From Loktanella sp. 5RATIMAR09 (GTDB lineage: Bacteria; Pseudomonadota; Alphaproteobacteria; Rhodobacterales; Rhodobacteraceae): a stretch of 64,000 nucleotides of DNA. Shown piece by piece: positions 11,161 through 13,743 of the stretch; the stretch's first letter is position 1; every line of letters begins with the position of its first letter. The stretch is from NCBI RefSeq assembly GCF_001419985.1, contig NZ_LJAL01000001.1:310001-374000 (forward strand), written 5' to 3'. Below the pieces are notes generated by a model. The model was given only the letters and a program-made list of their open reading frames with translations, searched no databases and was not told the origin of the DNA. The position numbers and the translations under genes were made by a program.

Positions 11161-12026
11161 TGGCAATCTGGAACCTTGGGTCAATCAACGCGGATTTCGT
11201 GTACCGCGTCCCACACATTCCCGCACCGGGTGAAACGCTGTCGTCCACCGGCCGCCAGATGTTCTTGGGCGGCAAGGGGACCAATATGTCGGTCGCTGCA
11301 GCCCGTGCTGCGGCCCGCGTACATCACATTGGCGCGGTCGGTGAAGACGGACGCTGGGCGATCCAGCGCTTGCTTGAATATGGTGTCGATACCCGCAATA
11401 TCGCTGTATTAGACACTGAAACCGCCCAAGCGATCATTATGGTCGATCCCGAGGGCGAGAATGCAATCGTCCTTCATCCGGGGGCAAATGCCGAAATCCC
11501 CCAAGTTACCCTGCAGGCCGCAATGGCCGAGGCGGAAACCGGCGATTGGCTGATCATCCAGAACGAAACCAACCTGCAACGCACCGCCGCCGAAATGGGC
11601 AAAAAGCTGGGTCTGCAAATCGCCTATGCTGCGGCGCCCTTCGATGCAGATCGTGTAAAGGCGGTGTTGCCGTCTCTCGATTTTCTGATCCTCAACGCGG
11701 TTGAGGCTGCCCAGTTTGAAGAGGCCACCGGCACAGCCCCCGCTGATTTGCCTGTGCGCGATGTCATCGTGACCCGCGGTGCAGACGGCGCAGATTGGTA
11801 CAGCGCGGCTGGAAAACAGCATTTCCCTGCGATCAAAGTCGACCCTGTCGATACCACCGGCGCAGGTGATACCTTCACCGGTTACGTTCTTGCTGGCCTT
11901 GATCGGGGATTGCCGATGGCGCAGGCGATCGGGCAAGCGACCAAAGCAGGCGCGCTGATGGTCATGCGGCATGGCACCGCCGATGTGATCCCCGATCTAT
12001 CCGAAGTGCAGGACTTTCATCCCTGA
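11160..12026 (+). CDS. PfkB/ribokinase-family carbohydrate kinase
   Basis: The 288-residue protein is a PfkB-family sugar kinase that would phosphorylate a sugar or nucleoside hydroxyl with ATP. It shows GGKGTNMSVAAARAA (first PfkB signature) near residue 39 and the C-terminal ATP/anion-hole signature DTTGAGDTFTGYVLAG with its catalytic Asp. The ATG overlaps the maeB stop by one base, so it is probably co-transcribed with maeB. Ribokinase is the closest well-known relative, but no rbs transport genes are nearby and the substrate cannot be assigned. Confidence 0.88.
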   Translation: MAIWNLGSINADFVYRVPHIPAPGETLSSTGRQMFLGGKGTNMSVAAARAAARVHHIGAVGEDGRWAIQRLLEYGVDTRNIAVLDTETAQAIIMVDPEGENAIVLHPGANAEIPQVTLQAAMAEAETGDWLIIQNETNLQRTAAEMGKKLGLQIAYAAAPFDADRVKAVLPSLDFLILNAVEAAQFEEATGTAPADLPVRDVIVTRGADGADWYSAAGKQHFPAIKVDPVDTTGAGDTFTGYVLAGLDRGLPMAQAIGQATKAGALMVMRHGTADVIPDLSEVQDFHP

Positions 12027-12092: not shown

Positions 12093-12992
12093 ATGACCGA
12101 AGTGACCACTCATCAGGCCCAGGATGATGCCCGTAACGAGACGATCCTGATCTACGTTGACGGCAAGATCGTTCCCAAATCCCAAGCGACCGTCAGTGTT
12201 TATGACAGCGGATTTATGCTGGGTGATGGTGTTTGGGAAGGGCTGCGGCTTTATGATGGCAAATGGGCCTTTATGGATGAGCATCTTGACCGGCTTTTCG
12301 AGGCCGCAAAAGCGATTGATCTCGACATTGGCATGGACCGAAAAGGCGTGGTTTCCGCCTTGTTAGAGACACAAAAGGCCAATGGCATGACCACAGATGC
12401 CCACGCGCGACTGATGGTGACCCGTGGGGTAAAGGTGCGCCCTTTCCAACACCCCGGCCTGTCGCAATCTGGGCCTACTTTCGTGATCATCATGGAGCAT
12501 TCGCGCCCCAAAATCCCGCGCCCGATTACCCTTGCCACGGTCCCCCACCAGCGTGGCCTGCCAATGACGCAAGACCCGAAACTGAACAGCCACTCGAAAC
12601 TCAACTGCATCCTCGCCTGCATCGCTGCGCAAAAGGCAGGTGCAGATGAAGCGCTGATGCTCGACGTGCATGGCTTTGTGAACACGACAAATGCCTGCAA
12701 CTTCTTTATCGTCAAAAAGGGCGCGGTCTGGACCAGCACGGGTGACTATTGCATGAACGGCATCACCCGCCAAAAGGTGATCGACCTGTGCCGCGCCAAT
12801 CAGATACCGGTGTTTGAGCGCAACTATAGCCTCGTTGATACTTACGCTGCAGATGAGGCGTTTCTCACGGGGACTTTCGGCGCGCAAACCCCCGTCAGCA
12901 CGATTGATGGCCGCACGATTGGTAGCGGCGAACTCGGTCCGGTGACCGCACGTTTGCGCACGCTCTACAAGGATTTGGTGGAACGGTCATGA
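12093..12992 (+). CDS. Class IV aminotransferase (BCAT/D-amino-acid aminotransferase fold)
   Basis: The 299-residue protein has the fold-type IV PLP aminotransferase layout: YDSGFMLGDGVWEGLR near residue 37, a PLP lysine candidate Lys169 in SHSKLNCILA, and TGTFGAQTPV near the end. Branched-chain and D-amino-acid aminotransferases normally carry a glutamate that holds the PLP ring nitrogen in a G-x-x-x-E pattern; here the stretch GFVNTTNACNFF places Thr198 there. AGGAGA lies upstream of the ATG. The next gene encodes a sulfotransferase-like protein, and the pair looks like one unit. Calling it IlvE would go beyond the evidence. Confidence 0.85.
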   Translation: MTEVTTHQAQDDARNETILIYVDGKIVPKSQATVSVYDSGFMLGDGVWEGLRLYDGKWAFMDEHLDRLFEAAKAIDLDIGMDRKGVVSALLETQKANGMTTDAHARLMVTRGVKVRPFQHPGLSQSGPTFVIIMEHSRPKIPRPITLATVPHQRGLPMTQDPKLNSHSKLNCILACIAAQKAGADEALMLDVHGFVNTTNACNFFIVKKGAVWTSTGDYCMNGITRQKVIDLCRANQIPVFERNYSLVDTYAADEAFLTGTFGAQTPVSTIDGRTIGSGELGPVTARLRTLYKDLVERS

Positions 12993-13044
12993 TGTGGCAG
13001 CAGTATGTACACGCTGTGGACAACCTCTCCGCGGGATGTGGCCG

Positions 13045-13743
13045 ATGAGAATTGCCATGTGGTCCGGCCCGCGCAATCTCTCGACCGCGATGATGTACGC
13101 CTTTGGCAACCGCGCGGATTTCGCGGTTTGGGATGAGCCGTTCTACGCCCCCTATCTGAAGGTAACCGGCGCAAACCACCCGATGCGTGCTGACATCATC
13201 GCCGGACACGAGACCGACCCGACGATCGTCGCACAACGCTGTTTAGACACTATTCCAGCCGAAAAACCGCATTTCTACATGAAGCACATGCCGCATCACA
13301 TGATTGCGGGCTTCCCGTTAGACTGGGCGCGGGATTGCATCAACATCCACCTGATCCGCCACCCCGCCCGCGTGATTGCAAGCTACGGTGCCAAGCGTGA
13401 CGAGATGACGCTCGAAGACATCGGCTTCACCCAGCAAGCGGCCCTCTATGACCAGATTGGCGGCCTCGTAATTGACAGTGCGGACATCCGTGCAGACCCC
13501 GGTACGATGTTGGAAAAACTCTGTGATGCGATTGATCTGAACTTCGATCCGGCAATGCTCGCATGGCCCGCAGGGCCACGTGCGGTTGATGGTGTCTGGG
13601 CCGCCCATTGGTACAACGCGGTCCATCAAAGTACGGGATTTGCGTCTGCCGAAGGGCCGCTACCGACGGTAGATGCAAAACATCGCCAAATGCTTGCCAA
13701 AGCCATACCGCTTTACGAAAAAATGCAGGCCAGAAAGCTCTGA
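13045..13743 (+). CDS. Sulfotransferase-like P-loop protein
   Basis: The 232-residue product starts MRIAMWSGPRNLSTAMM. The SGPRNLST stretch is a P-loop like the PAPS 5'-phosphosulfate loop of sulfotransferases, and INIHLIRHPARVIASY resembles the 3'-phosphate-binding segment. It would transfer a sulfuryl group or otherwise use a nucleotide; the acceptor is unknown. ATG at 13045 was chosen because earlier in-frame starts add residues not resembling the family. It follows the aminotransferase gene by 52 bases on the same strand. It ends tail-to-tail with argG, with a repeat element between them. Confidence 0.75.
   Translation: MRIAMWSGPRNLSTAMMYAFGNRADFAVWDEPFYAPYLKVTGANHPMRADIIAGHETDPTIVAQRCLDTIPAEKPHFYMKHMPHHMIAGFPLDWARDCINIHLIRHPARVIASYGAKRDEMTLEDIGFTQQAALYDQIGGLVIDSADIRADPGTMLEKLCDAIDLNFDPAMLAWPAGPRAVDGVWAAHWYNAVHQSTGFASAEGPLPTVDAKHRQMLAKAIPLYEKMQARKL

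What the first reader, a model, noticed from the sequence alone, without database searches (positions are those of the whole stretch)
12093..13743. Aminotransferase and sulfotransferase-like protein as a possible functional pair
A class IV aminotransferase gene is followed by a P-loop sulfotransferase-like gene on the same strand. From memory, some plant proteins called 'branched-chain-amino-acid aminotransferase-like' join similar parts in one chain; if right, this pair is a bacterial two-gene version of an undefined pathway. Such a pair could make or sulfonate an amino-acid-derived metabolite.
Basis: partly seen in the sequence, partly recalled or inferred. Interest (0 to 1): 0.55.

Follow-up and report, generated by a model that had tools for sequence, protein, structure and literature searches.

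The report
Lysine-less aminotransferase-like protein paired with sulfotransferase
Two neighbouring bacterial genes, one resembling an aminotransferase but lacking the lysine that such enzymes need and one resembling a sulfotransferase, are inherited together even when they lie far apart, which points to an uncharacterised two-protein step, perhaps in the metabolism of sulfated amino or imino acids.

Summary
The pair is real. The aminotransferase-like gene (AT, 12093-12992) is followed by a Sulfotransfer_5 gene (ST, PF19798, ATG 13045 to 13743). Of 149 genomes of the window's own family, 101 have both, 1 ST only, 4 AT only and 43 neither. In 30 of the 101 the genes are not adjacent, yet both are kept. 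In a phylum sample of 398, all 37 ST genomes have AT. No fusion was found in the loci read.

AT is not an ordinary aminotransferase. The PLP lysine is Asn in all relatives read (201 segments; 41 further rows). The residue expected at the pyridine nitrogen is Thr/Ser, while phosphate-binding residues are kept. The closest solved structure, 7z79, shares the Asn; its depositors made N174K. ST models as a PAPS sulfotransferase.

Away from ST, AT repeatedly joins polar-amino-acid ABC transporter operons and lies near cis-3-hydroxyproline dehydratase-type genes (5 of 11 AcnX copies within 8 kb). Sulfatases beside AT are fewer, but one overlaps it in Mameliella.

Best reading: a two-protein module acting on a hydroxylated amino/imino acid and its sulfate ester. 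Substrate and chemistry are unproven.

The parts
12093..12992 (+). aminotransferase-like gene (AT), 299 aa, PF01063 fold without the PLP lysine
   Evidence: closest solved structure 7z79
12585..12587 (+). codon for N165, at the place of the catalytic lysine (the Asn changed to Lys in 9j32)
   Evidence: alignments (Lys in 5cm0, 5e25, 5mqz); N in 84 of 84 distinct sequences, 201 of 201 segments, 102 of 102 rows
12684..12686 (+). codon for T198, at the place of the acid that contacts the pyridine nitrogen in ordinary class IV enzymes (role of that acid recalled)
   Evidence: T in 77, S in 7 of 84; E in the own-genome paralogue L003 and in the archaeal enzymes
13045..13743 (+). sulfotransferase gene (ST), 232 aa, Sulfotransfer_5 (PF19798)
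   Evidence: fold match to PAPS sulfotransferases
13063..13086 (+). ST P-loop SGPRNLST (residues 7-14), the expected 5'-phosphosulfate binding loop (meaning recalled)
   Evidence: S7, G8, P9, R10, N11, S13 and T14 in 84 of 84; position 12 is L 72, I 11, M 1
13357..13383 (+). ST R105...S113, the expected 3'-phosphate binding motif (meaning recalled)
   Evidence: R105 and S113 in 84 of 84
11163..12026 (+). PfkB/ribokinase-like gene just upstream, same strand; syntenic context, not shown to be part of the module
   Evidence: a neighbour of ST in 8 of the 19 non-adjacent ST loci in which ST was called

Best explanation
AT and ST form a two-protein metabolic module. ST is a PAPS-dependent sulfotransferase that puts sulfate on a hydroxyl group of an amino- or imino-acid-derived metabolite. 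AT is an enzyme of the class IV aminotransferase fold that still has the phosphate-binding cup but acts without a lysine-PLP internal aldimine. It works on the amino/imino-acid end of the same metabolite; a hydroxyproline-like compound is the leading candidate. Shown: the pairing, the co-retention, the loss of the lysine and of the pyridine acid, and the repeated recruitment of AT into amino-acid import operons and next to hydroxyproline genes, sometimes beside sulfatases. Inferred: that ST is active with PAPS, that AT binds PLP or PMP, that both act on one metabolite, and the identity of that metabolite.
For: Co-occurrence 101/1/4/43 in 149 genomes with 30 non-adjacent but co-retained pairs; 37 of 37 ST genomes have AT in a phylum sample of 398; 75 of 80 named loci have ST downstream. 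N165 in all 201 segments and 102 of 102 tree rows, while R52, G223, T225, R226 and T259 of the phosphate cup are invariant in 84 of 84 (R226 in 101 of 102). Mean identity to the window in the 12 loci that hold MutS, MaeB, AT, ST and ArgG: AT 82%, MaeB 81%, ArgG 87%, MutS 70%, ST 59%, which speaks for an active AT. ST model pLDDT 96; best matches are the CurM and olefin synthase sulfotransferase domains and TPST1/2, Z 14-15. AT away from ST: 12 of 43 loci with ABC permease genes of the polar-amino-acid type within six genes (type judged from annotated plasmid copies); ABC association needs at least 6 gains or losses on well supported branches of a quick tree. 5 of 11 AcnX genes in 34 genomes lie within 8 kb of AT, expected 0.045; [quoted passage not shown] Choline-sulfatase-profile genes over the cut-off: overlapping AT by 4 bp in Mameliella alba, 4.3 kb away in Yoonia, 3.2 kb away in G079/L241.
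Against: No activity data for either protein. The hydroxyproline and sulfatase contexts belong to AT copies away from ST (mostly a mobile clade of the own family and a second clade of about 50% identity), so they may not tell the substrate of the paired form. The sulfatase link is thin: 3 of 63 choline-sulfatase-profile matches (E up to 1e-60) lie within 8 kb of AT, and of these only one exceeds the profile's cut-off (1 of the 43 that do); expected for all 63, 0.24. Several AT operons carry a CLC chloride channel gene and proC instead. Most of the 43 AT loci show neither ABC permeases nor AcnX. No third gene is shared by the distant paired loci.
Confidence: 0.42

Rival explanations
1. AT is a catalytically dead pseudoenzyme that binds PLP, PMP or an amino acid and serves as scaffold or sensor for ST.
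For: The lysine is absent in all sequences read and the pyridine acid is Thr/Ser. ST is almost never found without AT: 1 of 102 genomes with a strong ST match.
Against: Some genomes have AT without ST: 4 of 398 and 4 of 149, one of which (G082) has a weak, distant PF19798 match. AT is the last or an inner gene of amino-acid ABC operons with no ST nearby. AT is conserved about as tightly as MaeB and ArgG.
Confidence: 0.2
2. Sulfation as activation: ST sulfates a hydroxyl to make it a leaving group, and AT then eliminates or displaces sulfate using PLP bound without a lysine, giving an imine or unsaturated product. This would parallel kinase plus PLP phospho-lyase pairs (recalled).
For: By Foldseek, ST is closest to the CurM and olefin synthase sulfotransferase domains (tied with TPST1 by Z), which sulfate to create a leaving group (recalled). 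AT neighbours include reductases of the imine-reducing families ProC, ornithine cyclodeaminase and Ldh_2. A CLC anion channel gene sits in several AT operons.
Against: No chemistry shown; fold similarity does not show a reaction; sulfatases in some AT operons would remove the leaving group.
Confidence: 0.15
3. AT is a true transaminase in which another residue (K169, four residues on) takes over from the missing lysine.
For: Position 169 is Lys in 77 and Arg in 7 of 84 sequences, Lys in 88 and Arg in 14 of 102.
Against: Arg cannot form the aldimine; the Arg type includes 7z79 itself. Position 169 aligns with a tyrosine in the archaeal enzymes.
Confidence: 0.07
4. The genes are unrelated in function and merely travel together as neighbours in a core region.
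For: In the own family the place between mutS/maeB and argG is stable.
Against: Both are kept in 30 of 101 genomes where they are not adjacent, and they are adjacent in all 14 ST genomes outside the own family in the phylum sample, in other surroundings.
Confidence: 0.04

Closest known systems
Aminotransferase-like protein of Variovorax paradoxus (PDB 7z79; N174K mutant 9j32)
   Same: 46-51% identity over nearly the whole length, Asn at the lysine position, same fold
   Different: the entry titles give no function and no sulfotransferase partner; I found no paper on it in the library
Branched-chain and D-amino acid aminotransferases (class IV, fold type IV)
   Same: fold (Z about 32 with 5e25), phosphate-binding residues
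   Different: no Schiff-base lysine, no pyridine acid; D12, R14 and N15 are invariant where the paralogue L003 has A, A and H
PAPS sulfotransferases: CurM and olefin synthase domains, TPST1/2
   Same: fold over nearly the whole chain, P-loop with Arg, R...S motif; E31 lies 21 residues after the P-loop Arg, as does the TPST2 base (TPST2 spacing recalled)
   Different: only about 10-20% identity; separate small protein tied to an AT-like partner
L-hydroxyproline gene clusters (LhpI/AcnX; PMC5144071, abstract and passages seen)
   Same: some AT copies away from ST lie among AcnX, imine reductase-family, ABC transporter and enolase-superfamily genes
   Different: 'aminotransferase', 'transaminase' and 'sulfatase' do not occur in that paper's text; the window pair itself is not in such a cluster

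Membership tests
class IV aminotransferase (as an enzyme class) | Aminotran_4 profile and fold | tested here: met
   PF01063 E 1.1e-39; fold Z 28-36 with class IV enzymes
class IV aminotransferase (as an enzyme class) | lysine that forms the internal aldimine with PLP | tested here: not met
   N165 in 84 of 84, 201 of 201 and 102 of 102; K in the own-genome paralogue L003 and in the archaeal enzymes
class IV aminotransferase (as an enzyme class) | acid at the pyridine nitrogen (recalled) | tested here: not met
   T198 or S in 84 of 84; E in L003
class IV aminotransferase (as an enzyme class) | phosphate cup (Arg, G-I/V-T-R, Thr; recalled) | tested here: met
   R52, G223, T225, R226 and T259 in 84 of 84; R52 is Ser in the paralogue L003 but Arg in the archaeal enzymes
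class IV aminotransferase (as an enzyme class) | transamination activity | not testable with these tools
   needs protein
Sulfotransfer_5 (PF19798) | profile match over the curated cut-off | tested here: met
   335 bits against 23.2, nearly whole length
PAPS-dependent sulfotransferase | fold and PAPS-binding motifs (recalled) | tested here: met
   Z 14-15 with TPST1, 4gox and 4gbm; P-loop, R105 and S113 invariant in 84
PAPS-dependent sulfotransferase | enzyme for PAPS synthesis in the genome | tested here: met
   APS kinase domain in own genome, E 2.6e-60; 137 of 149 relatives, so not discriminating
PAPS-dependent sulfotransferase | sulfate transfer to an acceptor | not testable with these tools
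   needs protein
plant sulfotransferase/aminotransferase-like single-chain proteins | both domains in one chain, same residues | not testable with these tools
   no plant genomes held; no bacterial fusion in the loci read
L-hydroxyproline gene cluster component | location among Lhp genes | tested here: inconclusive
   true for some AT copies away from ST, not for the window pair

The most novel reading that the evidence does not exclude
A lysine-independent enzyme of the class IV aminotransferase fold works in tandem with a sulfotransferase: ST sulfates a hydroxy amino or imino acid (hydroxyproline-like), and the AT-like partner carries out the next step, perhaps sulfate elimination, on a PLP held only through its phosphate. 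This would be a new enzyme chemistry and a new class of sulfated amino-acid metabolites in marine and soil Proteobacteria, perhaps also in plants.
Probability: 0.15. Interest if true: 0.85.

Novelty: new variant of a known kind. Interest (0 to 1): 0.6.

Why it matters
The lysine is generally held to be indispensable in aminotransferases. Here a large, slowly evolving protein family has Asn in its place, is tied by inheritance to a sulfotransferase, and is also recruited into amino-acid import operons. The lysine-less structure 7z79 has no function in its title. The pairing with PF19798, the non-adjacent but co-retained pairs, and the neighbours (cis-3-hydroxyproline dehydratase, imine reductase families, choline-sulfatase family) turn it into a testable question with a short list of substrates. 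Dinoroseobacter shibae is a ready test strain: its AT is on plasmid pDSHI05, and in genome G035, whose 72,296-base contig holds the same AT, ST lies on the main contig.

Tried and rejected
Third conserved partner: gene calls and clustering in 60 loci plus the window (neighbour lists printed for 32 of them) and in 80 named loci gave only syntenic housekeeping neighbours (mutS, maeB, PfkB kinase, argG; lpd and its neighbours in sphingomonads). My simple gene caller misses genes in some loci, so absence is weak evidence.

Fusions: none among six-frame ORFs of the loci fetched up to then; later loci were not tested for fusions.

APS kinase as a discriminating profile: present in 137 of 149, uninformative.

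ST on plasmids: none in 72,556 records at E 1e-20, while AT is in 20 at E 1e-60. In the family of G365, 0 of 119 have ST and 2 of 119 have AT; no control genome rang for ST, so that zero is weak.

SBP_bac_3 enrichment near AT: the list was cut, so I give no figure.

Defence-system library: no match for either protein.

Papers: nine searches ran, on 7z79/9j32, lysine-less class IV enzymes, the recalled plant loci, PF19798, sulfated hydroxyproline and AcnX clusters; I saw no functional study of this pair in their listings. Seen: passages of PMC12506393 and PMC11625862, where PF19798 appears only in lists; abstract and passages of PMC5144071; otherwise listings and the starts of abstracts.

Rows dropped or limited: two of the 104 genomes with ST matches were left out because their only match was weak (G082, counted as AT only; G098, counted as neither); 'not adjacent' there also covers pairs on different contigs, so assembly breaks may hide a few adjacent ones. 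The 201 segments were chosen by a family score of at least 400 bits and include repeats (163 distinct). In one search, 3 of 46 AT loci and 1 of 20 ST loci were missed by the gene caller, and one of the 46 (L262) was a pair. In one search, 64 sulfatase matches were counted as 63 because two pieces are one broken gene. The P values treat genomes as independent, which they are not. The tree is the quick one (the careful search did not finish), with labels that I assigned by hand. In the alignment the outgroup is misplaced at residue 165; the lysine position rests.

Full report
Observation. The two genes are present as described. AT is 12093-12992 (299 aa, PF01063); ST is 13045-13743 (232 aa, PF19798). 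Upstream on the same strand lie maeB and a PfkB/ribokinase-like gene, and downstream on the other strand argG (maeB, mutS and argG named by reading the proteins).

Pairing. In 149 genomes drawn from the own family, PF19798 was searched and the AT protein at E 1e-60. Using ST matches of full strength (102 of the 104 genomes with any match), 105 genomes have AT, 101 have both, and 43 neither. In 71 of the 101 the genes are adjacent on one strand (70 in the order AT-ST, 1 reversed); in 30 they are not. Co-retention in these 30 is the strongest evidence for a shared function. In a sample of 398 genomes of the phylum, 37 have ST and 41 AT, and all 37 ST genomes have AT; the 14 of these outside the own family have the two genes side by side (13 AT-ST, 1 ST-AT by the printed coordinates). 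The 80 are ranked by similarity to a gammaproteobacterial-type query and are not a random sample.

AT is not a standard aminotransferase. Aligned with lysine-bearing enzymes (own-genome paralogue L003; archaeal enzymes), the PLP lysine is N165 in AT. It is N in 84 of 84 distinct sequences, in all 201 segments of a wider set (200 by motif, one, L170, read by eye with a changed following residue) and in 102 of 102 rows of the tree set, 41 of them from loci not in the 201. The acid expected at the pyridine nitrogen is T198 (77) or S (7); position 169 is K (77) or R (7); D161, H167, S168 and N200 are invariant in the 84 (H167 is lost in L170). R52, G223, T225, R226 and T259 of the phosphate cup are invariant in the 84. 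In the 12 own-family loci that hold MutS, MaeB, AT, ST and ArgG, mean identity to the window is 82% for AT, 81% MaeB, 87% ArgG, 70% MutS and 59% ST, so AT is under strong constraint. The best solved relative is 7z79, 'aminotransferase-like protein from Variovorax paradoxus' (E 6e-87), and 9j32 is its N174K mutant (title); in the alignment the same Asn is the one changed to Lys. The AT model (mean pLDDT 86, lower around residues 31-40 and 161-170) matches 7z79 with Z 36.5, rmsd 1.9 over 291 residues.

ST. The model (mean pLDDT 96) matches TPST1 (Z 14.8, rmsd 4.3, 207 residues), the olefin synthase sulfotransferase domain 4gox (Z 14.6, 3.4, 209) and the CurM domain 4gbm (Z 14.4, 3.6, 211); these are ties. 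By sequence alone 4gox is also the best hit, weakly (E 0.003). W6, S7, G8, P9, R10, N11, S13, T14, D30, E31, K80, R105 and S113 are invariant in 84. E31 sits 21 residues after R10, as the catalytic Glu does after the P-loop Arg in TPST2 (recalled). The own genome has an APS kinase domain.

AT away from ST. In genomes with the genes apart, ST mostly stays at the ancestral spot (mutS a neighbour in 14 and maeB in 14 of the 19 loci where ST was called), while AT lies elsewhere. On a quick tree of 103 rows, 38 of the 55 rows labelled as AT away from ST form one clade (support 95) apart from the window's paired clade, and association with ABC operons needs at least 6 gains or losses on well supported branches. 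Among 43 AT loci examined, 12 have ABC permease genes of the polar-amino-acid type within six genes. Annotated plasmids show the operon regulator, binding protein, two permeases, ATPase, AT in Marinovum, Mameliella, Yoonia (there with an ornithine cyclodeaminase-family gene before AT), Palleronia and others, with a CLC channel gene and proC in Paracoccus, Thioclava and Agrobacterium; in others (Ruegeria, Dinoroseobacter, P. seriniphilus) AT stands beside other genes. For most of these plasmid hosts I did not check whether the chromosome holds ST.

Hints at the substrate. In 34 genomes with AT not adjacent to ST or without a strong ST, there are 11 AcnX genes over the cut-off; 5 lie within 8 kb of AT (217, 272, 584, 5108 and 7328 bp), expected 0.045; none lies near ST. 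[quoted passage not shown] PMC5144071 (abstract and passages) states that this gene often sits in L-hydroxyproline clusters with ABC-type transporter, regulator and proline-racemase-like genes, that there are two unrelated pyrroline-2-carboxylate reductases, and that in Labrenzia an enolase-superfamily gene takes its place. Ldh_2, ornithine cyclodeaminase-family, ProC and enolase-superfamily genes are seen beside AT here, though the enolase-superfamily ones fall below the cut-offs of all families listed. Sulfatases: 3 of 63 matches to the choline-sulfatase profile lie within 8 kb of AT, expected 0.24, and only one of the three passes the cut-off; one (L243) stands with a formylglycine-generating-enzyme-type gene. 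In Mameliella alba a choline-sulfatase (591 bits, cut-off 433) overlaps AT by 4 bp and is followed by DapA-like, FAD oxidoreductase, SDR and aldehyde dehydrogenase genes. So a sulfate link appears on the AT side without ST, but in few loci.

Interpretation. I read the pair as one metabolic module: ST sulfates, and AT handles the amino/imino end without a lysine-PLP aldimine. The sulfation-as-activation version is the boldest reading; the scaffold version cannot be excluded. What is known: the fold families, the lysine-less structure and the Pfam domain. What I did not find described, in the searches named under Tried and rejected: the link between the two families, their co-retention, or the operon contexts.

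Noticed in passing
L274:8892-10676, L275:8918-10678, L276:8959-10680, L282:6917-8638: A CLC chloride channel gene (ClcB-like in the two tested, L274 and L276) follows the lysine-less AT in amino-acid ABC operons on plasmids of Agrobacterium, Thioclava and Paracoccus, with proC; an anion released by the pathway is one possible reason.
   Followed up: partly
L284:6001-12836 and L286: Mameliella alba plasmid operon: AT overlapping a choline-sulfatase-family gene, then DapA-like, D-amino acid dehydrogenase-like, SDR and aldehyde dehydrogenase genes, with a proline racemase-family gene further on; looks like catabolism of a sulfated imino acid.
   Followed up: partly
L224: An AT locus on a short contig of an actinobacterium (Segeticoccus rhizosphaerae) resembles proteobacterial copies; contamination or transfer.
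   Followed up: no
G126:C23, G139:C13, G073:C1 and others: Weak second PF19798 matches (about 32-72 bits) in several genomes of the own family, a distant sulfotransferase subfamily; their neighbours were not examined.
   Followed up: no
L243:1-3987: Sulfatase, formylglycine-generating-enzyme-type protein and a B12-binding-domain protein encoded together next to an AT/ABC operon.
   Followed up: partly
AT residues 169 and 198: The counts at the two positions match (K 88/R 14 and T 88/S 14 of 102), which suggests two AT subtypes, K/T and R/S; the pairing row by row was not checked.
   Followed up: no
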